NCBI RefSeq assembly: GCF_002571225.1
Contig: NZ_NVEC01000023.1
Location: forward strand, 36,475-100,474
Reading direction: 5' to 3'
Length of the DNA stretch: 64,000 nt
Origin: Bacillus sp. AFS059628
GTDB lineage: Bacteria; Bacillota; Bacilli; Bacillales; Bacillaceae_G
Both the position numbers and the translations under genes were made by a program. Under the pieces are notes generated by a model. The model was not told the origin of the DNA. It did not search any database and worked only from the letters and a program-made list of their open reading frames with translations. Below, in pieces: positions 11,176 to 16,183 of this stretch (positions are counted from its first letter, which is position 1; each line of letters opens with the position of its first letter).

Positions 11176-11430
11176 ATGTTAAAAAAGCTTTGACATTTTG
11201 TCTTATGTCTTTTCTTTGTTTCTATTCTTTACCCCATGCCCATCAACTTAAGAATTTTATAATGCCCTAAAACAAAAAAATGTACATTTTTATCTTGTGT
11301 GTTAATCTTCTCGTCTTGGAGTATTTGCTTTCCTTAGCTTGCTGGTGATAGATCTGTACTCCTGGTAGAAAAGTATTTTTTTACTTATAATGGAATATAT
11401 AACTTAATCAATTAACAAGGAGAATGGAAT

Positions 11431-11847
11431 ATGATACAAAGTATTAACCATATTTGTTTTTCAGTTGCAAATCTAGAGAAAGCTATTGAGTTTTATCAAA
11501 ATATACTTCAAGCAAAATTATTAGTAAAAGGTAGAAAGTTAGCTTATTTTGATTTAAATGGTTTATGGATTGCTCTAAATGTGGAAGAAAGTATACCAAG
11601 AAACGAAATTCAGTACTCTTACACACATATAGCTTTCACTGTAACAAATAATGAGTTTGATTCTTTAAAAGAAATATTAATTCAAAATCAGGTTAATATC
11701 TTACCTGGACGAGAAAGAGATGACCGAGATAAACGGTCTATTTATTTTACAGATCCAGATGGTCACAAGTTTGAGTTTCATACTGGTACTTTACAAGATC
11801 GTTTACAATATTATAAAGAAGATAAAAAGCATATGACTTTTTACTGA
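11431..11847 (+). CDS. fosB: FosB metallothiol transferase (fosfomycin resistance)
   Basis: A 138-residue VOC-superfamily protein that follows FosB throughout. It opens with SINHICFSVANLEKAIEFYQ, has RGRKLAYFDLNGLWIALN-type sequence in the middle, then HIAFTV, RERDDRDKRSIYFTDPDGH, and ends DRLQYYKEDKKHMTFY. Metal ligands are His7, the His of YTHIAF and the Glu of FEFHTG. FosB opens the epoxide of fosfomycin with bacillithiol, using a divalent metal, in the cytoplasm. AAGGAG precedes the ATG. The gene is a passenger inside an IS231-type element, so it is mobile with an apparently intact transposase. Confidence 0.92.
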   Translation: MIQSINHICFSVANLEKAIEFYQNILQAKLLVKGRKLAYFDLNGLWIALNVEESIPRNEIQYSYTHIAFTVTNNEFDSLKEILIQNQVNILPGRERDDRDKRSIYFTDPDGHKFEFHTGTLQDRLQYYKEDKKHMTFY

Positions 11848-11997
11848 TTAAAAAAACTAGTAAAATACTAGCTTTTCACACTTCTGATAATGAAGATTAT
11901 GTAAATGTATAAAAGTAACAGAAATAATGATTAAACAGATATATAAGGTACTAATATATCGCTATAAAACTAGGGTTTTGCACTATCCATAAAGCCA

Positions 11998-12046
11998 AAA
12001 AGACGTTATCCTTTCTGTAGAATTATAGGAAAGGATGGCGTCTTTT
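11998..12046 (+). promoter_or_regulatory. Stem-loop covering the transposase ribosome binding site
   Basis: Bases 11998-12015 pair with 12029-12046 over 18 positions, counting two G-U pairs, and the right arm contains the AAGGATGG ribosome binding site directly before ATG 12047. A transcript entering from outside would fold and hide the start, a control known for IS4-family elements. The same structure is seen before the transposase at 38822 and the remnant at 29177. Confidence 0.75.
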
Positions 12047-13483: not shown

Positions 13484-14818
13484 TTTAAAAAATGAAACCC
13501 GTTAGGGTTTATTTGGGATGCTTATTTTTAAGAGTATGCTTTTATTTTAGGAATGTTTTGATCCGATGAGCCGAAAGCTCAAGTTGTGCTTACTCTTAAG
13601 TTGATGGGCATGATTCTTTACCCACACATGCTGAAATCGGAACTGGCAGGATGAGACGATATATTTCTTAATGTTTGATAGATTTAACAATGGTGATTCT
13701 AAAAATGATCAGAATATTAATGTTCTTGATCCATTTAGTTTTCAAGGAAGGATTTTCAGGGGATTATTGATAAATTAGATTACCTAAAAGACCTTGGTTT
13801 TACCACATTAATGCGTACCCTATCTTTAAAAATGATTATAAGGGGCATGATGGATATAGAATCACAGATTTTATAAAACGAATGAGCATTTTTGATCAAT
13901 AAAAGAGTTTAAAAAACTAGTTGATGAGTCACATAAAAGAAATTTAAAAATCATCATTGATTTTCCTACGAATCAAGTGAGTGCAGAAAATCCTTTAGTT
14001 AATGAACCAAATAAGAAGGATTGGTTTAAAGAGGAATCTGCAGAACATGTTTTTGCAATGGGTCAAACAAATCCTGACGTAAATCAATATAAATTGATAC
14101 TGCAAAATGGCGGATAACAAAAATAAATATAGATGGATATTTAACGATTAATCGATCGATGAAACCTGTGCTTGCTATTAAAGAAGATTAAAAACAATCT
14201 AAATTCCATAGTAATGGGAGCCTTTTTCAATAAGCATTATATGAAAAGATATACAAGAGATATGGTTAATAATAATGAATTTTCAGGTGAACGATGGAAA
14301 TTAGCGTTAACTTATTTATATACTCAAGAAGAAATACCAATTGTCTATTATGGTTCTGAAATTGCAATTGATGGTGGCAATGTTCCTGATAATCAAAAGA
14401 TGATGAATTTCAGAACGGAAAAAATGGATTTATTATATAAAAAGGAAATATGGAGATGATAAAAATATTGTCGTAATTAACAATACAAACCAAACATAGG
14501 TTGTTAAACTAACAACAGATCAAGTAAATAATATAGAAGAATCTAGAGGTTTATTAAATGGTGGGGGTGTTCGTGCATGCCCATCAACCTAAGATTTTAA
14601 GATACCCCATAACGAAAATTTCACCTTTTTACAGTTATTTATGAGAATTCGGCTCATTTTTTTGTTTTGGAGAACAACCAATTTTTTAAATTGATAGAGA
14701 TGCATTATAGAATTTGGTTGGTGTCAAATCAATCCATTTGGATGGGGACAGAAAGTAATTTCTGTTTTATGTTGATTAATGAATGAAACTTAAAACTTTA
14801 ATTAAGAGGGGGAGAATT

Positions 14819-15196
14819 ATGAATTTGACCATATTGGATACTACATTTTCTGTTATAAAATTACCTAAAACAGAAGAAGTACCTTCTTGGGCGAGCAAAG
14901 GCGAATTATTTTCTATCACACGTACAAATGAAGAACTTTCGATTGTTTGTGCTTCATCCAATGTTCCTGATAACATTCTAAAAGACGTTGAGCATGATTG
15001 GAAGTGCATTAAAGTAGAAGGTATGTTAGATTTTGGATTAACAGGAATATTATCTTCCTTAGCCAATCCACTAGCGGATAATAATATAAGCATTTTTGCT
15101 ATTTCTACTTTTAACACTGATTATTTATTAGTTAAACTGCATTCCATAGAAAAAGCAAAATCAGTATTGGAAAATGCAGGACATACATTTATCTAG
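14819..15196 (+). CDS. ACT-domain protein (CASTOR-like)
   Basis: A 125-residue protein of two ACT-like repeats. The first half contains LTILDTTFSVIKLPKTEEVPSW and SITRTNEELSIVC; the second has GMLDFGLTGILSSLANPLAD, then ISIFAISTFNTDYLLV. The GLTGILSSL..ISIFAISTF pattern is typical of the stand-alone ACT proteins related to CASTOR and to the regulatory part of aspartokinases, which bind small ligands such as amino acids. No enzyme domain is attached. AGGGGGAG lies before ATG 14819; the ATG at 14783 has no such site. It is the passenger of a transposable cassette, so a role in stress or toxin handling is possible but unproven. Confidence 0.82.
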   Translation: MNLTILDTTFSVIKLPKTEEVPSWASKGELFSITRTNEELSIVCASSNVPDNILKDVEHDWKCIKVEGMLDFGLTGILSSLANPLADNNISIFAISTFNTDYLLVKLHSIEKAKSVLENAGHTFI

Positions 15197-15862
15197 GCGT
15201 ATAAATACTAACTAAACCAGTAATAGAAACTAATACATCAGCTATTTCTTTATATAAAAAACTATTTAGACGCGTTATTATATATCGATTAACTGAAAAA
15301 CAACTTTGAGAACGTAAAAAAAACAAGTGTATACGGAAAGTAAAAAGGGTATTACATACTCAGAGAAAAGCAAACGATTAACTGGTATGAACATTTATGT
15401 TACCAATACACCTTTGGAATGGGTTCCGAGGGAATAAATACATGATTTTTATTCCCTCCGCTGGCAGATTGAGATTATCTTTAAAACTTGGAAATCCTTA
15501 TTTCAAATTCATGATTGGCACAATATGAAACGAGAGCGATTAGAATGCCACATTTATGGAAAACTCATCGCTATTTTTCTATGTTCTTCTACCATGTTTA
15601 AGATGCAATAATTAATTTTACAAAAGAAGAAAAGAGAATTAAGCGAATATAAGCCATTGGAATGATTCAAGGCCATCTATACATTCTTTATCAAGCTATA
15701 CAGCAAAACACCCGAGAAATAACAAAGGTTTTAATCCACCTGTTTCATCTTCTACAGAAGAATGGACGAAAATCTCATGGATATAAGAAGAAGACTGTCT
15801 TTGATATTATAGGTGTTGTCTATGAGTATAATGGATTGAGAAAACAAAAGAAAATTGAATAA
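15197..15862 (+). pseudogene. GNAT tail and IS231 transposase 3' remnant
   Basis: Directly after the ACT gene about 20 residues of a GNAT C-terminus are readable (ETNTSAISLYKKLF). Then from about 15265 the sequence follows the C-terminal 200 residues of the IS231 transposase (compare 12890-13483). It carries several stops and frame changes; the open part 15662-15862 keeps HEITKVLI-like and KKTVFDII sequence. The catalytic Glu region (CGCTGGCAGATTGAGATT) is still recognisable. No function is expected. Confidence 0.8.
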
Positions 15863-16183
15863 TAAAAAAAGTGAAACCGATTAGGATTTATTTGGTATGC
15901 ACATTTTTAAGAATATACTTCTATTTTAAGAATGTTTTAACCCGGCTGAACGAAAGTTCAGTTTGTTTACACTCTTAAGTTGATGGGCATGGGGTGTTCG
16001 TGCAGAGAAGAAAACCTTTAAACTTGCTTTAGAAAGAGAATCCGCTGAAATTTATAAGGTTGTAGAAAAAACAGGTATTAACTTTATGTTTATTTCAGTA
16101 CTTGTTCTTATTTGGATTGTATTCTTTGCCTTTATCTTCATTATTAAGAAGCAAGGAAAGATAAAAAAATATAATAGCTTTTA

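What the first reader, a model, noticed from the sequence alone, without database searches (positions are those of the whole stretch)
11176..16183. One alpha-amylase gene hit twice by passenger-carrying IS231 elements
The signal peptide (11176-11234), body (13613-14575) and membrane anchor (15992-16183) of one GH13 amylase are separated by a fosB-IS231 and by an ACT-domain cassette. Each insertion has its own exact 11-bp duplication, ATTCTTTACCC and GGGTGTTCGTG. Two independent cargo cassettes in one target is unusual and gives a clear order: the gene decays around fixed insertion scars.
Basis: seen in the sequence. Interest (0 to 1): 0.72.

Follow-up and report, generated by a model that had tools for sequence, protein, structure and literature searches.

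The report
Amylase pseudogene with two IS231 cassettes
A dead starch-digesting enzyme gene was hit twice by jumping genes that carry cargo, and both carriers look as if they were built by pairing a tiny non-coding jumping element with a normal one, which suggests how such cargo gets picked up.

Summary
Three pieces of one GH13 alpha-amylase gene map in order to one intact orthologue, from Heyndrickxia sporothermodurans rather than the B. cereus group. Two IS231-type insertions separate them, each with an exact 11-bp duplication. The amylase has decayed without selection for most of its branch. The fosB element is intact; the ACT element is a cassette with only a decaying transposase fragment.

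The added finding is how the cargo elements are built. The left ~120-130 bp of each is derived from an IS231-type MITE; in the ACT cassette it aligns end to end with a MITE at 41631-41758. The fosB element keeps a relic of the inner left end of its IS231 part. MITE-passenger-IS231 composites with one exact outer duplication occur in two other records, a solo MITE with an exact duplication in a third; 8 of 10 inner junctions examined carry the IS231 target signature. Counter-examples without a MITE exist. IS231 passengers are known; capture between a MITE and an IS231 seems undescribed, but the key 1999 and 2004 papers were not readable.

The parts
11067..11234 (+). Amylase piece 1: upstream region, start codon (11176) and signal-peptide region; frameshifted early
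   Evidence: 85% nt identity to L001 5061-5232
11224..11234 (.). First target duplication, left copy (ATTCTTTACCC)
   Evidence: same 11-mer once in the intact orthologue
11235..13612 (+). fosB-carrying IS231-type composite element, 2378 bp, 19/19 terminal repeats
11235..11350 (+). MITE-derived left module of the fosB element (inner right end altered; inner boundary approximate)
   Evidence: 11305-11345 matches the right arm of the L036 MITE, 0 of 2000 shuffles as good; aligns with the left module of L066
11431..11847 (+). fosB passenger, 138 aa, intact open frame
   Evidence: NF000098 321.8 bits, cut-off 295
11968..12037 (+). Relic of the inner left end/leader of the IS231 part
   Evidence: matches the left leader of passenger-free L046, 0 of 2000 shuffles as good
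12035..13483 (+). IS4-family (IS231 subgroup) transposase, 482 aa, intact frame, DDE and YREK present
13613..13623 (.). First target duplication, right copy
13613..14575 (+). Amylase piece 2: body, with frameshifts, stops and two larger deletions
   Evidence: Pfam PF00128 on the open part 14172-14456
14565..14575 (.). Second target duplication, left copy (GGGTGTTCGTG)
14576..15991 (+). ACT-domain cassette, 1416 bp, 18/19 terminal repeats, no complete transposase
14576..14702 (+). MITE copy forming the left end of the ACT cassette
   Evidence: aligns end to end with the reverse complement of window 41631-41758: 99 identities, 27 mismatches, 3 gaps
14705..14775 (+). Captured flank of the ACT gene, starting 2 bp inside the MITE end
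   Evidence: 80.6% over 72 bp to DNA upstream of the ACT homologue in L050
14819..15196 (+). ACT-domain passenger gene, 125 aa, intact, third-position-biased changes
   Evidence: Pfam PF13840 and PF21631; branch counts 7:5:22 or 10:8:19 by reference used
15254..15862 (+). Decaying 3' fragment of an IS231-type transposase
   Evidence: 82.6% to B. arachidis plasmid element L044 through the right end; branch counts 9:12:12
15992..16002 (.). Second target duplication, right copy
15992..16184 (+). Amylase piece 3: C-terminal part with membrane helix and stop; homology runs to 16193
   Evidence: 87% nt to L001 6479-6683
36118..41758 (+). Related composite in the same window: MITE, MFS gene, IS4 transposase, FAD oxidoreductase, MITE
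   Evidence: outer duplication 10/11 (TGGTGATACCC/TGGTGATACAC), left MITE 36118-36238, inner IS end 38731
41631..41758 (.). 128-bp MITE with two IS231-type ends, template for the comparison; its own flanks agree at 4 of 11

Best explanation
A GH13 alpha-amylase gene (secreted, membrane-anchored, of the Heyndrickxia type) lost its function and decayed. Two composite IS231-type elements inserted into it at chance GGG/CCC target half-sites, each making an 11-bp duplication. Each is built as MITE + passenger + IS231 part: a short non-coding element with IS231 ends sits on one side of a passenger gene (fosB or an ACT-domain gene) and an IS231 on the other. The transposase uses the outermost pair of ends, so the passenger travels with them; the inner ends then decay. 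The fosB element carries an intact transposase frame; the ACT cassette has only a transposase fragment and would need a transposase supplied by another element. Shown here: the anatomy, the exact duplications, the MITE-like left modules, the relic inner end, sister composites with exact outer duplications, target signatures at inner junctions. Inferred: mobility, use of the outer ends by the transposase, the ACT cassette moving in trans, the ACT cassette being older than the fosB element.
For: Exact duplications and terminal repeats. One orthologue covers all three pieces with a one-duplication overlap at each joint. Window-branch changes by codon position 31:18:18 against 10:4:18 on the intact orthologue's branch, Fisher p=0.007. 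MITE right arm found inside the left end of three window passenger elements, 0 of 2000 shuffles each; passenger-free controls L045-L047 gave 615-852 of 2000. End-to-end MITE in the ACT cassette. Captured flank begins 2 bp after the MITE end. Relic inner IS left end in the fosB element. Composite L036 (MITE, DinB gene, IS231; 2587 bp) and L066 (MITE, two serine hydrolases, IS231; 5964 bp) with 11/11 outer duplications, and a solo 135-bp MITE (L097) with 11/11. 11 of 11 duplications of 10/11 or better start GGG or end CCC, against 723 of 63990 window 11-mers. 8 of 10 inner junctions carry the same signature.
Against: Three passenger-type elements (L033, L035, L039) carry extra DNA without a MITE, so this is not the only route. 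Only 1 of 19 MITE-sized end pairs has a matching duplication; the other 18 rows (not all independent: L037 and L103 are one place) agree at 2-6 of 11, the window MITE at 4. The inner junctions of the ACT cassette and of 36118 do not keep the target signature. L066 and L068 were fetched because they match a MITE. L044, L037 and L068 have the architecture without a good outer duplication: 1, 2 and 8 of 11. The L066 transposase is itself split between two frames. No transposition was observed. The branch tests rest on few changes (67 against 32; 33 against 44), blocks shorter than 12 bases were dropped, and poorly aligned parts of piece 2 may inflate the window count.
Confidence: 0.83

Rival explanations
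1. Ordinary IS231 elements with passenger DNA placed between left repeat and transposase by unknown means (the published description), with no MITE involved; the left modules are extended IS ends.
For: Published IS231 passengers lie exactly there (PMC2266710 section 6). L033 has passenger DNA there and no MITE.
Against: The ACT left module matches a complete MITE from end to end, both ends included; inner right arms are in three window elements; a solo MITE with exact duplication exists; 8 of 10 inner junctions carry target signatures. Three passenger-free left ends lack the module.
Confidence: 0.13
2. The insertions killed a working amylase and all decay followed; the fosB or ACT insertion was the first lesion.
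For: The orthologue matches the first duplication 11/11, so the first target was unmutated when hit.
Against: Both copies of the second duplication share G at a position that is V, V, I, I in four orthologues. The window branch shows no third-position bias, while the fosB element has an intact transposase frame and a FosB protein identical to that in L005.
Confidence: 0.25
3. Assembly artefact: IS copies misplaced at a repeat junction.
For: The window holds further IS231-type ends and transposase fragments.
Against: Exact duplications at both insertions and continuity of the amylase across both joints are hard to get from misjoining.
Confidence: 0.02

Closest known systems
IS231 subgroup of the IS4 family, with passenger genes
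   Same: Ends, duplication length, DDE/YREK transposase, passenger between left repeat and transposase (PMC2266710: section 6 and passages seen)
   Different: Here a MITE-derived left end, and relatives in Bacillaceae records outside the B. cereus group; that paper found the subgroup almost only in that group
MIC231 mobile insertion cassettes
   Same: ACT cassette: IS231-type ends, passenger, no working transposase; trans-activation of MIC231 by IS231 transposase is cited in PMC1196294 (passages seen)
   Different: Keeps a transposase 3' fragment; passenger is an ACT-domain gene. The original papers (1999, 2004) were not held
TIME-COMP elements of the Tn3 family
   Same: Miniature elements flank and mobilise passenger DNA as a composite (PMC4133298: abstract and passages seen)
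   Different: TIME-COMPs have a miniature element at both ends and no transposition gene; here one end is an IS231 with or without its transposase
Classical IS composite transposons
   Same: Two elements flank a passenger and the outer ends are used (recalled)
   Different: Unequal partners: one MITE and one IS

Membership tests
IS4 family, IS231 subgroup (fosB element) | Ends CAT-7-AA-2-TAA | tested here: met
   All four ends of the two elements match (definition PMC2266710 Table 1)
IS4 family, IS231 subgroup (fosB element) | D(60-110)D(100-150)E and Y(2)R(3)E(6)K | tested here: met
   D131, D202, E353, spacers 70 and 150; YTLRWQIEIVFKTWK
IS4 family, IS231 subgroup (fosB element) | 10-12 bp direct repeats | tested here: met
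   11 bp, exact
IS4 family, IS231 subgroup (ACT cassette) | Complete transposase | tested here: not met
   Only the 3' part with stops and frameshifts; so it is not filed as an IS
MIC231-type cassette (ACT cassette) | IS231-type ends, passenger, no working transposase | tested here: met
MIC231-type cassette (ACT cassette) | Mobilised in trans by an IS231 transposase | not testable with these tools
   Needs a transposition assay
MITE related to IS231 | Short, non-coding, two IS231-type ends | tested here: met
   41631-41758, L036 3667-3785, L097 6919-7053
MITE related to IS231 | Own target duplication | tested here: inconclusive
   1 of 19 MITE-sized end pairs has 11/11 (L097); the others 2-6 of 11, the window MITE 4
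Composite transposon | One duplication around the outer ends with both flanking elements recognisable inside | tested here: met
   L036 and L066 11/11; fosB and ACT elements 11/11 with altered or lost inner ends
GH13 alpha-amylase | Catalytic domain | tested here: met
   PF00128 on the orthologue and on part of piece 2; the window copy is a pseudogene

The most novel reading that the evidence does not exclude
Capture between a MITE and an IS231 is a main way IS231-type elements acquire passenger genes: a MITE and an IS231 land in target half-sites on either side of a gene, the outer ends move together, and decay of the inner ends then makes the product look like an IS with passenger DNA inserted after its left repeat. 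Of the seven elements that I found without a MITE as query and that clearly have extra DNA between left end and transposase, six fit (window fosB, ACT and 36118 elements, L036, L037, L044) and one does not (L033). L036 and L037 are near copies of each other; L042, L043, L114 and L115 could not be judged because a clear pair of ends was not found.
Probability: 0.58. Interest if true: 0.55.

Novelty: new variant of a known kind. Interest (0 to 1): 0.42.

Why it matters
IS231 elements are called modular because some carry passenger genes just inside their left repeat, but how the genes get there is rarely visible. Here several stages can be seen side by side: a solo MITE, composites with both inner ends still recognisable, and older ones whose inner ends are relics. 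It gives a testable route by which a resistance gene or a metabolic sensor gene becomes mobile without a second full insertion sequence, and a simple search rule (a MITE arm inside the left end of an IS) for finding more. The double hit in the amylase itself is ordinary pseudogene history in a stretch rich in such elements.

Tried and rejected
B. cereus-group origin of the amylase: not supported. The fosB element as a common element of the Heyndrickxia family: 27 of 34 genomes match, but every match listed lies within query 196-621 (67-73%), the fosB part alone, so these are read as separate fosB genes. The ACT cassette (14576-15256) in the same family: 0 of 34, without a positive control. ACT homologues: 15 of 398 class genomes; the four best loci (L049-L052) show no convincing IS231 ends, so no second ACT-carrying IS231 was found. 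A length difference in the second duplication suggested was rejected: read by codons, window and orthologue have the same length there. Naming the upstream flank in L050: no Pfam family beyond the ACT parts, so it is left unnamed. The window's organism: no genome held; partial matches to large plasmids, several of Bacillaceae; 1 of 150 genomes of the order matched 52000-60000, at 69%. L114 and L115 were checked for composites: nothing clear. In the orthologue check three loci (L105, L106, L109) were not read because my search word missed them; L002 and L104 are the same gene. Selections: of 25 plasmid records matching the ACT cassette I fetched three on that basis; of the eight records each I fetched the places of seven and five; of 18 MITE places I fetched 13 wider stretches.
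Full report
Observation. Two insertions lie in one gene. Element 1, 11235-13612 (2378 bp), has 19/19 terminal repeats and the duplication ATTCTTTACCC at 11224-11234 and 13613-13623. Element 2, 14576-15991 (1416 bp), has 18/19 repeats and GGGTGTTCGTG at 14565-14575 and 15992-16002. Each 11-mer occurs only at those two places in the window.

One gene. A scan of genome contigs with one open stretch of the middle piece confirmed 2 loci out of 213 candidate stretches, both Heyndrickxia sporothermodurans. L001 holds an intact 494-residue ORF (5173-6657) with PF00128 and an alpha-amylase C-terminal domain and a hydrophobic C-terminal stretch read by eye. The three window pieces, aligned separately, map to L001 5061-5232, 5222-6490 and 6479-6683. 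The overlaps are the duplications, and L001 has ATTCTTTACCC once. Homology ends at 11067 and 16193, and window 9000-11000 and 16500-20000 have no match in L001 or L002, so the gene sits in a different neighbourhood here. Of 34 held genomes of the family 29 match the enzyme at E <= 1e-60, 13 of these only over the C-terminal two thirds.

Decay. With L002 as outgroup, changes assigned to the window branch fall 31:18:18 on codon positions 1:2:3, those on the L001 branch 10:4:18 (Fisher p=0.007 for positions 1+2 against 3, blocks under 12 bases dropped). The middle piece shows 10 length differences in that alignment (17 under other gap penalties), including one of about 195 bp. So the gene has been free of selection for most of its branch. 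Both copies of the second duplication encode G where L001 and L002 have V and L107 and L108 have I; the ACT cassette therefore hit a gene that had already changed. Exact duplications alone date little: 22 bases without a difference fit a wide range of ages.

Element 1. fosB meets the B. cereus-type FosB model (321.8 bits, cut-off 295) and the transposase the IS4 model. DDE spacing 70/150 and the YREK motif fit the IS4 family (definition in PMC2266710). Its left end plus fosB (11235-11905) occurs at 98.7% in CP079755.1, with an identical FosB protein, but no right end or annotated transposase lies in the 8.7 kb fetched there.

Element 2. The passenger is a 125-aa ACT-domain protein (PF13840, PF21631) of unknown role, by its domains most likely an amino-acid-binding sensor (inference). 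The remaining transposase part begins at 15254 and matches a Bacillus arachidis plasmid element at 82.6% through the right end. Window-branch changes are 9:12:12 in the transposase fragment (reference branch 10:5:29, p=0.012) but 7:5:22 in the ACT gene, or 10:8:19 with another outgroup. The contrast of 7:5:22 with 9:12:12 has p=0.028. Much of the ACT branch may predate capture, so selection after insertion is not proved.

How the cargo got in. The left 127 bp of element 2 align from end to end with the reverse complement of a 128-bp MITE at 41631-41758 (99 identities, 27 mismatches, 3 gaps). Passenger DNA homologous to the upstream flank of an ACT gene in L050 starts at 14705, two bases inside the MITE end. 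The right arm of the L036 MITE is found inside the left ends of element 1, element 2 and the 36118 element (0 of 2000 dinucleotide shuffles each), and not in three passenger-free IS231 left ends (615-852 of 2000). Just before its transposase, element 1 keeps a relic of an IS231 left end (11968-12037, 0 of 2000). This is what a composite of MITE, passenger and IS231 leaves when inner ends decay.

Sister cases. L036: 119-bp MITE, DinB-type gene, 1637-bp IS231, one 11/11 duplication around all of it. L066 (Peribacillus sp. R9-11 plasmid): MITE, two serine hydrolase genes, IS231 with a transposase split between two frames, 5964 bp, 11/11. Window 36118-41758: 10/11. L097: solo 135-bp MITE, 11/11. 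L037, L044 and L068 have the architecture with outer flanks agreeing at only 2, 1 and 8 of 11. Flanks of recognisable inner ends carry the IS231 target signature (GGG start or CCC end) in 8 of 10 cases, against a background of 0.0113 per 11-mer; the altered inner ends of element 1 and of the L066 MITE were not in that count. All 11 duplications of 10/11 or better carry it. This suggests that MITE and IS arrived separately on either side of the passenger. Bias: L066 and L068 were found with a MITE query; L036, L037 and L044 were not. L033, L035 and L039 are passenger elements without a MITE. Of 398 class genomes, 8 had a match to element 1 at E <= 1e-60, in the transposase part, and 13 a MITE match at E <= 1e-4 (at most two candidates per genome were scored).

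Why this gene. The amylase orthologue has 18 of 1475 11-mers with the target signature, and both hits used such a site. Nothing more special about the gene is needed.

Literature. PMC2266710 (section 6 and passages) states that a significant fraction of IS231 elements carry extra DNA between left repeat and transposase gene, including resistance and metabolic genes, and that the subgroup was found almost only in the B. cereus group. PMC1196294 (passages) cites trans-activation of MIC231. PMC4133298 (abstract and passages) describes TIME-COMPs. Searches listed no paper that by title and abstract start describes MITE plus IS231 composites. One search found four papers holding both IS231 and MITE; the passages seen of all four (PMC6542083, PMC4133298, PMC3129680, PMC6352166) do not describe it. 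The 1999 and 2004 MIC231 papers could not be read, so priority is open.

Noticed in passing
L005, L047, L114, L116 (CP079755.1): The record named Klebsiella grimontii plasmid pNY3A carries spore germination, small acid-soluble spore protein and Spo0E-type genes and IS231-type elements: it looks like a Bacillaceae replicon under a wrong name.
   Followed up: partly
window 36118-43816: A 5.6-kb composite (MFS, transposase, FAD oxidoreductase) bounded by MITE-type ends, directly followed by another pair of IS231-type ends (41770-43816) around an acetyltransferase gene, flanks 8/11 alike.
   Followed up: partly
window 41620-41630; L044 2550-2560; L062 5953-5963; L005 3990-4000; L066 6127-6137: The 11-mer GGGTCACCATA recurs next to IS231-type ends in different records, as if it were a favoured target or part of another repeat.
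   Followed up: no
L040 1362-3005; L045 3074-4739: IS231 copies whose two flanks are reverse complements of each other rather than direct repeats, which may come from recombination between copies in the two ends of a transposon (the cause is a guess).
   Followed up: no
window 22642-23461: Stretch 81.7% identical to ant(9)-Ia aminoglycoside nucleotidyltransferase genes of enterococcal and other plasmids.
   Followed up: no
window 29177-29954: Another partial IS231-type left end and transposase fragment.
   Followed up: no
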